Origin: Pseudofulvimonas gallinarii
Lineage (GTDB): Bacteria > Pseudomonadota > Gammaproteobacteria > Xanthomonadales > UBA2363
DNA: 64,000 nt
Direction: 5' to 3'
Assembly: GCF_004343305.1 (NCBI RefSeq)
Contig: NZ_SMAF01000011.1
Coordinates: 1-64,000 of the forward strand
Shown: one piece after another, positions 22,229 through 28,646 of the stretch
Layout of the letters: the number at the start of each line of letters is the position of its first letter
How positions within the stretch are numbered: position 1 is the stretch's first letter
Translations under genes and position numbers: made by a program
The notes under the pieces: generated by a model
What the model saw: only the letters and a program-made list of their open reading frames with translations
Database searches by the model: none
Told to the model about the DNA's origin: nothing

Positions 22229-23464
22229 CTAGGGTGTGTGACCGCGATCCGCCGCCGGACCGGGTTCGACGCCGCTGTAGCGCGCACGCGGGCGGATCAG
22301 CTGGCCCATCGACTGTTGTTCCATCGCGTGCGCCAGCCAGCCGGCGAGGCGGCCGGCGGCGAACATCGCCAGCGCGTGTGCGGCGGGCAACGCGTGTACA
22401 TGGCACAGGGCGGCGAGCATGAAGTCGATGTTGGGGCGCAGGCCGCTGGCGTGCCACGCCGCGTCGACCAGCGTGTCCATCGCACGCACGGCCGGCTGAT
22501 CGCCGCGCTGCTCGCGCAGCAGTGCCAGCAGCGTCAGCCCGCGCGGATCGCCTTCCGGATACAGCGCATGGCCGAAGCCGGGCAGGTCGTCGCCGCGTTT
22601 CCAGCGCTCGTCGATGTGCGCGGCGGGCGAGGGCGTGTCCAGCGCATCGCGGATCAGTGCATACGCGCGCGCGGTGGCGCCGCCGTGGCGCGGTCCGGAG
22701 ATCGCCGCCAGCCCGGCGCAGACGGTGGCATGCAGGGGCGCACCGGTGGAGGCGACGACGCGTGCCGCGAATGCCGAGACATTGAGTTCGTGGTCGGCAC
22801 ACAGCACCAGTGCCGCACGCACCAGCGCGGCGAAGGCGCGGTCACGCGGCTTCCAGCAGCGCGCCAGCTGTTCGTGCACCGGCGTGACCTGCGGCGCCCG
22901 CCCGATCAGCAGGGCGGCGTTCTGGCGCAGCAGCAGGGCGGCGATCTCGCGTCGTACGCCGGTCGCTGCGCTGTGCGACTGCGGCAGTGTCAACGCCAGC
23001 AGTGGAATCGCCGCCAGTGCACGTTCCAGTGGTGGCAACGACGCATTGCCCGCCACCGGCTGCACGCTCGCCGGCCAGGCCGTGTCCACGTCGCGTGCGA
23101 AGGGATCGTCATCGCCACAGTCCCAGAGCAGGCGGGCGGCGTCTTCCAGCGTGGCGCCGTCGCGTGCCAGTGCCAGCGCCGAACGGCCGCGGTAATACGG
23201 GCCGTCGGGCCGGATCAGGCTGATGCGCGTCTCCATGACCGGCAGCCCGCGATCCAGGCTCTGCGCCGCGCCGCGCGCCGCGCCGCGGCCGGCGCGCTTG
23301 CGCTGCAGCAGCTTGTCGACGTCGAGGCGGCGGTAGACGCGACTGCGGTGGTCGGCCCCGGGACGCGACTGCAGCAGGCCGCGACTGACGTAGGCGTACA
23401 GTGTCGCGGCACTGATGCCGAGCAGCGCGCAGGCTTCATTCGCGGAGATGAATTCGTCCTTCAT
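22229..23464 (-). CDS. Helix-turn-helix/citrate synthase fusion protein, putative prp regulator
   Basis: This 411-residue protein joins a MerR-like helix-turn-helix to a citrate synthase fold. Residues 4-56 (ISANEACALLGISAATLYAY, then a basic wing RVYRRLDVDKLLQRKR) form the DNA-binding part; residues about 80-400 are citrate synthase. The catalytic equivalents are all kept: His225, His260 (GPRHGG), His299 (GFGHALY) and Asp347 (PNIDFML). It diverges from prpB-prpC-acnD, so it may bind 2-methylcitrate, propionyl-CoA or oxaloacetate and control that operon and itself. This role is inferred. Enzymatic activity is also possible. The ATG at 23464 starts just before the helix-turn-helix; no good ribosome site is visible. 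Confidence 0.85.
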   Translation of the reverse strand: MKDEFISANEACALLGISAATLYAYVSRGLLQSRPGADHRSRVYRRLDVDKLLQRKRAGRGAARGAAQSLDRGLPVMETRISLIRPDGPYYRGRSALALARDGATLEDAARLLWDCGDDDPFARDVDTAWPASVQPVAGNASLPPLERALAAIPLLALTLPQSHSAATGVRREIAALLLRQNAALLIGRAPQVTPVHEQLARCWKPRDRAFAALVRAALVLCADHELNVSAFAARVVASTGAPLHATVCAGLAAISGPRHGGATARAYALIRDALDTPSPAAHIDERWKRGDDLPGFGHALYPEGDPRGLTLLALLREQRGDQPAVRAMDTLVDAAWHASGLRPNIDFMLAALCHVHALPAAHALAMFAAGRLAGWLAHAMEQQSMGQLIRPRARYSGVEPGPAADRGHTP

Positions 23465-23473
23465 GCAGACATA

Positions 23474-23500
23474 TTGATTGATTGCATCAAGATTGATCAA
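23474..23500. promoter_or_regulatory. Candidate operator in the divergent prp intergenic region
   Basis: A 27-bp AT-rich block in GC-rich DNA holds four TTGAT half-sites. Two dyads stand out: TTGAT-TGC-ATCAA at 23478-23490 and the perfect palindrome TTGATCAA at 23493-23500. The block begins 10 bases upstream of the regulator start codon and lies about 90 bases before prpB. It probably serves as operator and part of the promoter for both directions. Confidence 0.6.
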
Positions 23501-23586
23501 CCCATGCCTGGCTGGCACAGTGGCAGCCACCTGGGGCCGTCAGCGCCGGATGGTCGGCGCACCGCACAGGACAGGAGCGCAATGCC

Positions 23587-24471
23587 ATGACCCAAGTTTC
23601 CGCCGGTGCCCGTTTCCGCGCCGCACTCGCCGCCGAGTCGCCGCTGCAGGTGATCGGGGCCATCAATGCCAACCATGCCCTGCTTGCGCAACGCGCCGGC
23701 TACAAGGCGATCTACCTGTCCGGTGGTGGCGTCGCCGCCGGCTCGCTGGGCCTGCCGGACCTCGGCATCAGCACGCTCGAGGACGTACTGATCGACACGC
23801 GCCGCATCACCGATGTCTGCGACCTGCCGCTGCTGGTGGACATCGACACCGGCTTCGGTCCCAGCGCCTTCAATATCGAGCGCACCGTCAAGAGCCTGAT
23901 CAAGGCCGGCGCCGCCGCCTGCCACATCGAGGACCAGGTCGGTGCCAAGCGCTGCGGCCATCGTCCCGGCAAGGAGATCGTGTCGCAGGGCGAGATGGTC
24001 GATCGCGTCAAGGCCGCCGCCGACGCGAAGACCGATGCCGCGTTCTTCCTGATCGCGCGCACCGATGCCATCGCCGTCGACGGCGTCGATGCCGCCATCG
24101 AGCGCGCCGTCGCCTGCGTCGAGGCGGGCGCCGACGGCATCTTCGCCGAAGCCGCCTATGACCTGGACACCTATCGCCGCTTCGTCGATGCGGTGAAGGT
24201 GCCGGTGCTGGCGAACATCACCGAGTTCGGCAAGACACCGCTGTTCAGCCGCGACGAGCTCGCCTCCGCCGGCGTCGCCATCCAGCTGTTCCCGCTGTCC
24301 GCCTTCCGCGCCGCCAACAAGGCCGCCGAAGCCGTGTACGAGGCCGTGCGCCGCGACGGTCACCAGAAGGCGGTGCTGGACAGCATGCAGACCCGCGAGG
24401 AACTGTACGATCGCATCGGCTACCACGCCTTCGAGCAGCGCCTGGACGCGCTCTTCGCCCGCAAGGGCTGA
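23587..24471 (+). CDS. prpB: 2-methylisocitrate lyase
   Basis: This 294-residue enzyme cleaves 2-methylisocitrate to pyruvate and succinate, the last step of the methylcitrate cycle for propionyl-CoA use. It has the isocitrate lyase/PEP mutase fold with metal-binding VDIDTGFG (84-91) and the signature KRCGH at 121-125 with catalytic Cys123. Its N-terminus ([24 protein letters not shown]) is typical of PrpB. It is first in the prpB-prpC-acnD operon and diverges from the helix-turn-helix/citrate synthase gene. The prpC start is 87 bp downstream. Confidence 0.97.
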
Positions 24472-24558: not shown

Positions 24559-25716
24559 ATGACCACCGAAACCTCCGCACCCGCCTTCAAGCCCAAGAAA
24601 TCCGTGGCCCTGAGTGGCACCGCTGCCGGCAACACGGCGCTGTGTACCGTCGGCCGCACCGGCAACGACCTCGCCTATCGCGGCTACGACATCCTCGACC
24701 TGGCGACGACCAGCGAGTTCGAGGAAATCGCCTACCTGCTGGTACACGGCAAGCTGCCCAACCGCGCCGAGCTGGCCGCCTACAAGGCCAAGCTGAAGTC
24801 GCTGCGCGGATTGCCGGCCGCGGTCAAGACCGCGCTGGAGCAGCTGCCGCCGTCGGCGCACCCGATGGACGTCATGCGCACCGGCGTGTCGGTGCTCGGC
24901 TGCATCAAGCCCGAGAAGGACGACCACAACCATCCGGGTGCCCGCGACATCGCCGACAAGCTGATGGCGTCGCTGGGATCGATGCTGCTGTACTGGTACC
25001 ACTTCGCCTACAACGGCAAGCGCATCGAAGTGGAAACCGATGACGACTCCATTGGCGGCCACTTCCTGCACCTGCTGCACGGCGAGCAGCCGCGCGACAG
25101 CTGGGTGCGGGCGATGCACACCTCGCTGATCCTGTACGCCGAGCACGAGTTCAACGCGTCCACGTTCACCTGCCGCGTCATCGCCGGCACCGGCAGCGAC
25201 ATGTATTCCTGCATCGCCGGCGGCATCGGCGCGCTGCGTGGCCCCAAGCACGGCGGCGCCAACGAGGTCGCGTTCGAAGTGCAGAAGCGCTACGAGACGC
25301 CGGACGAGGCCGAGGCCGACATCAGGGCGCGTGTCGAGCGCAAGGAAGTGGTGATCGGCTTCGGCCACCCGGTCTACACGGTGTCCGACCCGCGCAACAA
25401 GGTCATCAAGCAGGTGGCGAAGGAGCTGTCCGAAGAAGCCGGCAGCATGAAGATGTACGACATCGCCGAGCGCCTGGAGACGGTGATGTGGGATATCAAG
25501 AAGATGTTCCCGAACCTCGACTGGTTCAGCGCCGTCAGCTACCACATGATGGGCGTGCCCACCGACATGTTCACGCCGCTGTTCGTGATGGCGCGCACCG
25601 CAGGCTGGAGCGCGCACATCATCGAGCAGCGCATCGACGGCAAGATCATCCGCCCGAGCGCCAACTACACCGGTCCGGAAGACCAGGCCTTCGTGCCGAT
25701 CGACCAGCGTCCCTGA
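24559..25716 (+). CDS. prpC: 2-methylcitrate synthase
   Basis: This 385-residue enzyme condenses propionyl-CoA with oxaloacetate. The citrate synthase residues are His231 (GPKHGGANE), His270 (GFGHPVY) and Asp321 ([16 protein letters not shown]). The [12 protein letters not shown] and [12 protein letters not shown] segments and the short length favour methylcitrate synthase over the main, longer TCA citrate synthase. Context between prpB and acnD confirms the role. The helix-turn-helix fusion at 22229 carries a diverged copy of the same fold. Confidence 0.96.
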
Positions 25717-25804: not shown

Positions 25805-25866
25805 AACCTTTCCGTTCCAGTGGCGCGACCCCGGTCCCGCCCGTTCCCGATCCACCGAGGCCAGCC

Positions 25867-28479
25867 ATGAACCGCCAGCATCGCAAACCGCTTCCCGGCA
25901 CCCGGCTCGACTGGTTCGACGCGCGCGAAGCCGTCGAAGCGCTCCAGCCCGGCGCCTGGGCCGGTCTTCCGTACACCGCCCGCGTCCACGCCGAGAACAT
26001 CGTCCGCAAGGCCGATCCGGCACACATCGCCGACTACCTCGGCCAGCTGGTGCATCGCCGGCGCGAGCTGGATTTCCCCTGGTTCCCCGCGCGCGTGGTC
26101 TGCCACGACATCCTTGGCCAGACCGCGCTGGTGGACCTGGCCGGCCTGCGCGACGCGATTGCCGAGCAGGGCGGCGATCCCGCCGCGGTCAATCCGGTCG
26201 TGCCGGTGCAGCTGATCGTCGACCATTCGCTGGCGGTGGAATGCGGCGGCTACGATGCGCAGGCCTTCGAGAAGAACCGCGCGATCGAGGACCGGCGCAA
26301 CGAGGACCGTTTCCACTTCATCGACTGGACCAAGCGGGCGTTCCGCAACGTCGATGTCATCCCGCCGGGCAACGGCATCATGCACCAGATCAACCTGGAG
26401 AAGATGTCGCCGGTGGTCTATGTGCAGGACGGCGTCGCCTTCCCGGACACCTGCGTCGGCACCGATTCGCATACACCGCACGTCGATGCGCTCGGCGTCG
26501 TCGCCATCGGCGTCGGCGGCCTGGAAGCCGAGAACGTCATGCTCGGCCGCGCATCCTGGATGCGCCTGCCGGACATCGTCGCCGTCGAGTTGTCCGGGCG
26601 GCCACAACCGGGCATCACGGCGACCGACGTCGTGCTGGCGCTGACCGAGTTCCTGCGCAAGGAACGTGTCGTCGGCGCCTACCTGGAGTTCCGCGGCGAA
26701 GGCGCGGCGGCACTGACCATCGGTGACCGCGCGACGATCTCGAACATGGCGCCGGAATACGGTGCGACCGCGGCGATGTTCTTCATCGACGACAACACAC
26801 TCGACTACCTGCGCCTGACCGGCCGCACGGACGAACAGGTCGCGCTGGTGGAAACCTACGCCAGGACCGCCGGCCTCTGGGCCGACGACCTGAAGAGCGC
26901 GCAGTACGAACGCACGCTGCACTTCGACCTGTCCACGGTCGTGCGCAACATGGCCGGCCCGTCGAATCCGCACCGCCGCCTGCCGGTGGACGAACTGGCG
27001 GGTCGCGGCATCGCCGACCCGGCCAAGCTTGAAGCCGGCAAGGCCGACGAGGCGCAGGGCCTGATGCCCGACGGCGCCGTGATCATCGCCGCGATCACCT
27101 CGTGCACGAACACGTCCAACCCGCGCAACGTGATCGCCGCTGGCCTGCTGGCGCGCAATGCCGTGGCGAAGGGACTGGTGCGCAAGCCCTGGGTGAAGTC
27201 GTCGCTGGCACCGGGCTCCAAGGCCGTGCAGCTGTACCTGGAAGAAGCCGGCCTGCTGCCGGACCTGGAAAAGCTCGGCTTCGGCATCGTCGCCTTCGCC
27301 TGCACCACCTGCAACGGCATGAGCGGTGCGCTCGACCCGGCGATCCAGCAGGAAATCATCGACCGCGACCTGTATGCCACCGCGGTGCTGTCCGGCAACC
27401 GCAACTTCGACGGCCGCATCCATCCGTATGCCAAGCAGGCCTTCCTGGCGTCGCCGCCGCTGGTCATCGCCTACGCGATCGCCGGCACGGTGCGCTTCGA
27501 CATCGAGAAGGATGTGCTCGGCATCGACGCCGGCGGCAACGAAGTGCGACTGAAGGACATCTGGCCCAGCGACGAGGAAATCGACGCCGTGGTGCGCGCC
27601 AGCGTCAAGCCGGAGCAGTACCGCAAGGTGTACGAGCCGATGTTCAACATCCGGGTCGAACAGGGCGGGAAGGTCAGCCCGCTCTACGACTGGCGTCCGA
27701 TGAGCACCTACATCCGCCGTCCGCCGTACTGGGAAGGTGCGCTGGCCGGAGAACGCACCCTGCGCGGCATGCGACCGCTCGCCGTGCTCGGCGACAACAT
27801 CACCACCGACCACCTGTCGCCGTCGAACGCGATCCTGCGCAGCAGTGCCGCCGGCGAATACCTGGCGAAGATGGGCCTGCCGGAAGAGGACTTCAATTCC
27901 TACGCCACGCATCGCGGTGACCACCTGACCGCGCAGCGCGCCACCTTCGCCAATCCCAAGCTCATCAACGAGATGGCGGTGGTCGATGGCGAGGTGAAGC
28001 AGGGATCGCTCGCGCGCCTGGAGCCGGAAGGCACGGTCATGCGCATGTGGGAGGCGATCGAAACCTACATGGACCGCAAGCAGCCGCTCATCATCATTGC
28101 CGGTGCCGACTACGGCCAGGGCAGTTCACGCGATTGGGCCGCCAAGGGCGTGCGTCTTGCGGGTGTCGAGGCCATCGTCGCCGAAGGTTTCGAGCGCATC
28201 CATCGCACCAACCTCGTCGGCATGGGCGTGCTGCCGCTGGAGTTCAGGCCCGGCGAATCGCGCAAGACCTGGGGCATCGACGGCAGCGAGACCTTCGATG
28301 TCGTCGGCACGCCGGCGCCCCGGGCGACCTTGACGCTGGTGATCCATCGCCGCAACGGCGAGCGCGTCGAGGTGCCGGTGACCTGCCGCCTGGATTCCGA
28401 CGAGGACGTGTCGATCTACCAGGCGGGTGGCGTGCTGCAGCGCTTCGCGCAGGACTTCCTGGCGTCACGCGCGGCCTGA
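25867..28479 (+). CDS. acnD: Fe/S-dependent 2-methylcitrate dehydratase AcnD
   Basis: This 870-residue aconitase-family protein dehydrates 2-methylcitrate to 2-methylaconitate. Its [4Fe-4S] ligands are Cys413 (ITSCTNTSNP), Cys479 and Cys482 (ACTTCNGMSG). The swivel-domain motif is GADYGQGSSRDWAAKG. Sequence style and position after prpC mark AcnD rather than AcnA. In many bacteria AcnD works with the isomerase PrpF, which is not next to it here. ATG at 25867 (MNRQHRKPLPGTRLDWFDA) gives the usual start; the open frame extends 33 codons upstream through hairpin DNA. Confidence 0.95.
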   Translation: MNRQHRKPLPGTRLDWFDAREAVEALQPGAWAGLPYTARVHAENIVRKADPAHIADYLGQLVHRRRELDFPWFPARVVCHDILGQTALVDLAGLRDAIAEQGGDPAAVNPVVPVQLIVDHSLAVECGGYDAQAFEKNRAIEDRRNEDRFHFIDWTKRAFRNVDVIPPGNGIMHQINLEKMSPVVYVQDGVAFPDTCVGTDSHTPHVDALGVVAIGVGGLEAENVMLGRASWMRLPDIVAVELSGRPQPGITATDVVLALTEFLRKERVVGAYLEFRGEGAAALTIGDRATISNMAPEYGATAAMFFIDDNTLDYLRLTGRTDEQVALVETYARTAGLWADDLKSAQYERTLHFDLSTVVRNMAGPSNPHRRLPVDELAGRGIADPAKLEAGKADEAQGLMPDGAVIIAAITSCTNTSNPRNVIAAGLLARNAVAKGLVRKPWVKSSLAPGSKAVQLYLEEAGLLPDLEKLGFGIVAFACTTCNGMSGALDPAIQQEIIDRDLYATAVLSGNRNFDGRIHPYAKQAFLASPPLVIAYAIAGTVRFDIEKDVLGIDAGGNEVRLKDIWPSDEEIDAVVRASVKPEQYRKVYEPMFNIRVEQGGKVSPLYDWRPMSTYIRRPPYWEGALAGERTLRGMRPLAVLGDNITTDHLSPSNAILRSSAAGEYLAKMGLPEEDFNSYATHRGDHLTAQRATFANPKLINEMAVVDGEVKQGSLARLEPEGTVMRMWEAIETYMDRKQPLIIIAGADYGQGSSRDWAAKGVRLAGVEAIVAEGFERIHRTNLVGMGVLPLEFRPGESRKTWGIDGSETFDVVGTPAPRATLTLVIHRRNGERVEVPVTCRLDSDEDVSIYQAGGVLQRFAQDFLASRAA

Positions 28480-28539
28480 CGCCGCAGGGGCGGGACCGGC
28501 GCTGCTGTTCCCGCTGCCGCCTGTGGACGTGGAAGTCCC

Positions 28540-28646
28540 GGACTGGAAGGGCCGGAACTGGAAGGGCCGGAACTGGAAGGGCCGGAACTGGAAGGGCCGG
28601 AACTGGAAGGGCCGGAACTGGAAGGCCGGAACTGGAAGGCCGGAAC
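28540..28646. repeat. 15-bp minisatellite downstream of acnD
   Basis: About seven head-to-tail copies: a 14-bp variant, four full units GGAACTGGAAGGGCC between 28554 and 28613, two 14-bp units lacking one G, then a decayed copy. It lies in the convergent space between acnD and the pirin gene. Frames through it give simple RNWKG, AGTGR or PALPV repeats and look non-coding. Confidence 0.9.

What the first reader, a model, noticed from the sequence alone, without database searches (positions are those of the whole stretch)
22229..23464. Helix-turn-helix fused to a catalytically complete citrate synthase, divergent from the methylcitrate operon
The protein is a DNA-binding domain plus citrate synthase fold with His225, His260, His299 and Asp347 retained. 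It faces prpB-prpC-acnD. No PrpR or GntR regulator is present nearby, so this fusion could sense methylcitrate-cycle metabolites directly through an enzyme-like pocket. I do not know of a characterised regulator of this type.
Basis: partly seen in the sequence, partly recalled or inferred. Interest (0 to 1): 0.72.

Follow-up and report, generated by a model that had tools for sequence, protein, structure and literature searches.

The report
Citrate-synthase-based regulator of propionate genes
A bacterial protein made of a DNA-binding head joined to a complete-looking citrate synthase sits beside the propionate-breakdown genes; a DNA site conserved across several phyla next to its gene indicates that it is an undescribed family of gene switch that has turned a metabolic enzyme into its sensor.

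Summary
Observation confirmed. The gene at 22229-23464 (-) encodes a winged HTH plus a full citrate-synthase (CS) domain with intact catalytic residues, divergent from prpB-prpC-acnD. It belongs to one monophyletic, widespread family (at least 589 stretches in one capped scan). The decisive new evidence is an operator. TTGAT-N7-ATCAA-N-ATTG (window 23474-23495) lies between the fusion gene and its divergent neighbour in 42/42 prpB-linked, 24/24 CoA-transferase-linked and 48/58 CitA-type-CS-linked loci (within 2 mismatches), at one spacing; a form 1 bp shorter occurs outside Pseudomonadota. It occurs once in the window's genome and is absent upstream of prpB in the six fusion-less genomes checked. 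Its right end is the inferred -35 of the target promoter, with a -10 exactly 17 bp away in all three partner classes. Within family f2 the fusion (20 genomes) and classical PrpR (19) never co-occur (P = 7e-6); PrpR takes the same divergent slot. Carboxylate-binding arginines are invariant (140/140); catalytic residues are lost in 8. Most likely a one-component regulator whose CS pocket senses a methylcitrate-cycle metabolite. Ligand, sign and catalysis are untested. No prior description was found in the held library.

The parts
22229..23464 (-). Regulator gene: winged HTH plus citrate synthase fusion, 411 aa
   Evidence: 140 homologues share the architecture; fusion domains form one clade, 100/100 support
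23291..23452 (-). HTH_17 / MerR-like winged HTH (residues 5-58); near-invariant recognition region TLYAYVSRG
   Evidence: (Y23, Y25, R28 in 140/140); MerR-like phrog_2474
23243..23290 (-). Flexible interdomain linker (residues 59-74)
   Evidence: pLDDT below 50 in the AF2 model
22265..23242 (-). Citrate-synthase domain (residues 75-400) with H225, H260, H299, D347, R308, R372, R391, R393
23474..23500 (.). Predicted operator TTGATTGATTGCATCAAGATTGATCAA: inverted half-sites TTGAT / ATCAA plus a third site ATTGATCAA
   Evidence: core exact in 53/60 first-survey loci, 0 expected in shuffles; 114/124 of the three main partner classes within 2 mismatches; once in the genome
23493..23498 (+). -35 element (TTGATC) of the inferred prpB promoter, overlapping the operator
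23516..23521 (+). -10 element (CACAGT; relatives CAGATT/CACATT) of the inferred prpB promoter, 17-bp spacer, usually preceded by TGn
   Evidence: best -10 offset is 42 in all three partner groups; below the generic sigma-70 scan threshold
23587..24471 (+). prpB, methylisocitrate lyase (regulated neighbour)
   Evidence: NF008455 523 bits against cut-off 353
24559..25716 (+). prpC, 2-methylcitrate synthase (regulated neighbour)
   Evidence: NF009006 730 bits against cut-off 550
25864..28479 (+). acnD, Fe/S 2-methylisocitrate dehydratase (probable same operon; start codon inferred)
   Evidence: TIGR02333 1762 bits against cut-off 1420

Best explanation
The gene encodes a local, single-target, one-component transcription regulator. 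Its MerR-like winged HTH binds the ATTGAT-type half-sites of the 27-bp operator at 23474-23500 (site strongly inferred, binding not shown). Its citrate-synthase domain supplies oligomerisation and the ligand pocket (inferred). The operator lies 9 nt upstream of its own start codon, so binding should repress its own gene (inferred). It also overlaps the -35 of the divergent prpB promoter and is centred near -41 of the expected start, so it controls prpB-prpC-acnD, either as a class II-type activator or as a repressor relieved by ligand (sign not resolved; activator slightly favoured because the -10 is poor). The signal is probably 2-methylcitrate or another ligand of the arginine-lined carboxylate pocket, for example oxaloacetate plus propionyl-CoA (inferred). 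In this order it occupies the slot that sigma54-dependent PrpR holds in relatives.
For: Conserved operator with fixed spacing upstream of 53/60 family members, 0 expected in shuffles; 42/42 prpB-linked, 24/24 CoA-transferase-linked, 48/58 CitA-linked loci within 2 mismatches, 0/140 for the reversed control pattern; a 1-bp-shorter form in Chloroflexota, Acidobacteriota and Myxococcota. Unique in the 3.45-Mb genome. Absent upstream of prpB in six fusion-less genomes. -10 at exactly +42 from the operator start in three partner classes analysed separately. HTH residues Y23, Y25, R28 invariant in 140/140. Fusion and strict PrpR: 20 and 19 of 53 family-f2 genomes, no overlap, hypergeometric P 7e-6; PrpR divergent from prpB in L193-L196. 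Own genome has separate gltA and prpC. In G013 the fusion faces acnD with prpB elsewhere and the operator stays with the fusion. R308, R372, R391, R393 in 140/140, while the H225/H260/H299/D347 set is broken in 8, at least one of them (L053) with the operator intact.
Against: No DNA binding, expression or ligand data exist. The P value for exclusion with PrpR ignores phylogeny. The two congeners keep prpBC without the fusion, so it is dispensable to the pathway. Catalytic residues are retained in 132/140, more than a pure sensor needs. Activation and repression cannot be separated from sequence. Partners differ across the family, so ligands may differ too.
Confidence: 0.82

Rival explanations
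1. A bifunctional trigger enzyme: the CS domain is a working (methyl)citrate synthase and turnover or substrate occupancy (oxaloacetate plus acyl-CoA) gates DNA binding, so the protein reads flux rather than the level of one metabolite.
For: Full catalytic set kept in 132/140 homologues; fold closest to real methylcitrate synthases.
Against: Catalytic residues lost in several members, at least one with the operator intact (L053 H299N), while carboxylate arginines are never lost; domain is a deep separate clade scoring far below every CS equivalog cut-off; genome already has gltA and prpC.
Confidence: 0.2
2. An ordinary extra citrate or methylcitrate synthase with a non-functional HTH-like extension.
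For: Intact active site.
Against: Operator evidence; HTH more conserved than the N-terminal part of the CS domain; position divergent from a metabolic gene in nearly all loci.
Confidence: 0.04
3. The conserved DNA motif belongs to the neighbour's promoter or another factor, not to the fusion.
For: It overlaps the neighbour's inferred -35.
Against: Same motif with unrelated neighbours (prpB, CitA-type CS, CoA-transferase III, hydroxyacid dehydrogenase) and absent upstream of prpB where the fusion is absent.
Confidence: 0.05

Closest known systems
MocR/GabR family (wHTH plus aspartate aminotransferase fold), e.g. PMC6917764, PMC5320631
   Same: N-terminal winged HTH of about 60 aa, flexible linker, C-terminal enzyme-fold sensor of about 350 aa; regulator of a metabolic pathway related to its enzyme fold
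   Different: Sensor fold is citrate synthase, HTH is HTH_17/MerR-like not GntR, no PLP
PrpR, sigma54-dependent propionate regulator (TIGR02329)
   Same: Same divergent position next to prpB in the same bacterial family; same presumed target
   Different: Unrelated protein of the Fis/sigma54 type; mutually exclusive with the fusion here
GntR-family PrpR of Pseudomonas aeruginosa (PMC9765439)
   Same: Regulator of the methylcitrate genes, thought to respond to 2-methylcitrate
   Different: GntR/FCD protein, palindrome ATTGTCGACAAT, repressor; no homology outside a winged HTH
CitA / PRK12350 type citrate synthase (NF009005)
   Same: Same fold; best NCBIfam model for the window protein; frequent divergent neighbour of the fusion
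   Different: Standalone enzyme, no HTH; fusion scores 149 bits against cut-off 332 and forms a separate clade

Membership tests
Citrate synthase / methylcitrate synthase (enzyme family) | Citrate_synt fold and domain | tested here: met
   Pfam 209 bits; Foldseek best hits are methylcitrate synthases
Citrate synthase / methylcitrate synthase (enzyme family) | Catalytic His/His/Asp and oxaloacetate arginines | tested here: met
Citrate synthase / methylcitrate synthase (enzyme family) | Score above any CS equivalog/subfamily cut-off | tested here: not met
   best 149 bits against 332
Citrate synthase / methylcitrate synthase (enzyme family) | Enzyme activity | not testable with these tools
   needs assay
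MerR family regulators | MerR-type winged HTH | tested here: inconclusive
   HTH_17 above cut-off, PF00376 and PF13411 below cut-off; phrog_2474 MerR-like
MerR family regulators | Long antiparallel coiled-coil dimerisation helix after the HTH | tested here: not met
   disordered linker then CS domain
MerR family regulators | Site between -35 and -10 with a 19-20 bp spacer in the target promoter | tested here: not met
   inferred target spacer is 17 bp and the operator overlaps and extends upstream of the -35
PrpR (TIGR02329) | Score above cut-off | tested here: not met
   no PrpR above cut-off in this genome; fusion has no such domain
MocR/GabR | GntR HTH plus fold type I aminotransferase domain | tested here: not met
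One-component regulator with an enzyme-derived sensor domain (general kind) | DNA-binding domain fused to an enzyme fold, with a conserved cognate operator | tested here: met
   (binding itself not tested)

The most novel reading that the evidence does not exclude
A large, undescribed family of transcription factors spanning several phyla uses a catalytically competent citrate synthase as its sensor and reports the meeting of oxaloacetate with an acyl-CoA (flux or condensation-state sensing) directly to the promoter of the divergent pathway; in Lysobacterales this family was recruited to the methylcitrate cycle in the slot held elsewhere by PrpR.
Probability: 0.22. Interest if true: 0.82.

Novelty: new variant of a known kind. 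Interest (0 to 1): 0.66.

Why it matters
Enzyme-fold sensors on HTH proteins are a known kind (MocR/GabR), but no citrate-synthase-based regulator was found described in the held literature. This one is widespread (at least 589 matching stretches in a capped scan), carries a predicted operator conserved across phyla, and makes prp regulation in many Lysobacterales directly testable, where a review sentence (PMC9765439, citing Suvorova 2012) credits Fis-family PrpR in all analysed Xanthomonadales. Many records now called citrate synthase family protein may be regulators.

Tried and rejected
Viral contigs, plasmids and phages gave no fusion relatives, so it is not a mobile or phage gene there. 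Rfam found no RNA element. The generic sigma-70 scan found no promoter, so promoter elements rest on the cross-species alignment. A relaxed operator search of the genome gave only 2-mismatch sites besides the locus itself and was not pursued as a wider regulon. Ten literature searches found no citrate-synthase-HTH regulator; Suvorova 2012 itself was not held. A simple recent duplication of prpC as origin is rejected: the fusion domain is outside both the PrpC and CitA clades.

Full report
Observation. The ORF at 22229-23464 on the minus strand encodes 411 aa. Pfam finds HTH_17 (E 2.6e-8) and Citrate_synt (209 bits). AlphaFold2 (pLDDT 89.8) shows a winged HTH, a disordered linker and a CS fold; the best PDB matches are methylcitrate synthases. 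The divergent genes are prpB, prpC and AcnD at equivalog level. The genome has its own gltA and prpC, no PrpR above cut-off, and two GntR genes on other contigs.

Family. In the window's order 32 of 250 genomes carry a clear homologue (two further listed genomes, G019 and G218, have only partial CS matches). 47 of 398 genomes drawn across the phylum do so. A maximum-likelihood tree puts all sampled fusions in one clade (100/100), apart from PrpC, GltA and the CitA-type neighbours, so the fusion is old and is not a recent copy of prpC.

Context. The fusion nearly always faces a divergent metabolic gene, of three main kinds: prpB-prpC(-acnD) in Lysobacterales, a CitA/PRK12350-type citrate synthase in Alphaproteobacteria and other phyla, and a class III CoA-transferase in Burkholderiales and some others. 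In one genome (G013) it faces acnD directly while prpB lies on another contig.

Operator. The upstream sequences share TTGAT-N7-ATCAA-N-ATTG, exact in 53 of 60 loci at a single spacing; dinucleotide shuffles give none. Over 140 loci it is present within two mismatches in 42/42 prpB-linked, 24/24 CoA-transferase-linked and 48/58 CitA-linked cases; the reversed pattern gives 0/140. Several exceptions in Chloroflexota, Acidobacteriota and Myxococcota carry the same motif with a spacer one base shorter. In the window's genome the 15-mer ATCAAGATTGATCAA occurs once, even with two mismatches allowed. The motif is missing upstream of prpB in two congeners and four PrpR-type genomes, so it follows the fusion and not prpB.

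Promoter geometry. The right end of the operator supplies TTGATC. In all three partner groups, analysed separately, the best -10-like hexamer lies at exactly the same offset, 17 bp further on. In the window this is TTGATC 23493-23498 and CACAGT 23516-23521. The operator centre then falls near -41, where class II activators sit, but it also overlaps the -35, as a repressor would. The operator begins 9 nt upstream of the fusion's own ATG, so autorepression is expected. These are inferences; the start sites are not mapped.

Replacement of PrpR. Within the order, PrpR above cut-off occurs in 19 genomes, all of family f2, and never with the fusion. In f2 (53 genomes) 20 have the fusion, 19 PrpR, none both (P 6.9e-6, not corrected for phylogeny). 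In the four PrpR loci examined, PrpR lies divergent from prpB, in the fusion's position. Both types occur in one genus (g13). This looks like non-orthologous replacement.

Sensor. In 140 fusions the carboxylate arginines R308, R372, R391 and R393 never change, whereas the catalytic set H225/H260/H299/D347 is broken in 8, including L053 (H299N), which keeps the operator. The pocket is therefore under stricter constraint than catalysis. 2-Methylcitrate is the best candidate in the prp-linked branch by analogy with PrpR of Salmonella and the P. aeruginosa GntR regulator (as stated in PMC9765439), but the family's other partners argue for different or more general ligands.

Comparison. It works like MocR/GabR (winged HTH, linker, enzyme fold; PMC6917764) but belongs to no named regulator family tested here: not MerR proper (no coiled coil, different promoter geometry), not PrpR, not MocR. 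It fails every CS model cut-off in NCBIfam. No description of a citrate-synthase-HTH regulator was found in the held library (ten searches); absence there is not proof of novelty, since most subscription papers are not held and Suvorova 2012 could not be read.

Noticed in passing
window 28530-28646: Eight near-perfect tandem copies of a 15-bp unit (TGGAAGGGCCGGAAC) just downstream of acnD.
   Followed up: no
G000:C6:173737-174912: prpF, usually paired with acnD, lies on another contig of this genome, with no copy of the operator near it.
   Followed up: partly
L082, L083 (congeners G001, G002): The two congeners lack the fusion; prpB-prpC follow mdh directly in the same direction (aminotransferase-mdh-prpB-prpC), whereas in the window several kb and the fusion separate mdh from prpB.
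   Followed up: partly
L102, L103 (G629, G302): Divergent fusion homologues have lost H260 and D347 and lack the operator, in another gene neighbourhood: possible pseudo-enzyme regulators with a different target.
   Followed up: no
L060, L100: Fusions with the operator facing a D-2-hydroxyacid dehydrogenase; in L100 the next genes are a TctC-type binding protein and an FAA hydrolase family protein: a further partner class.
   Followed up: no
G197:C10:106750-107954: The fusion homologue is split into two overlapping pieces in different frames, a frameshift or a sequencing error.
   Followed up: no
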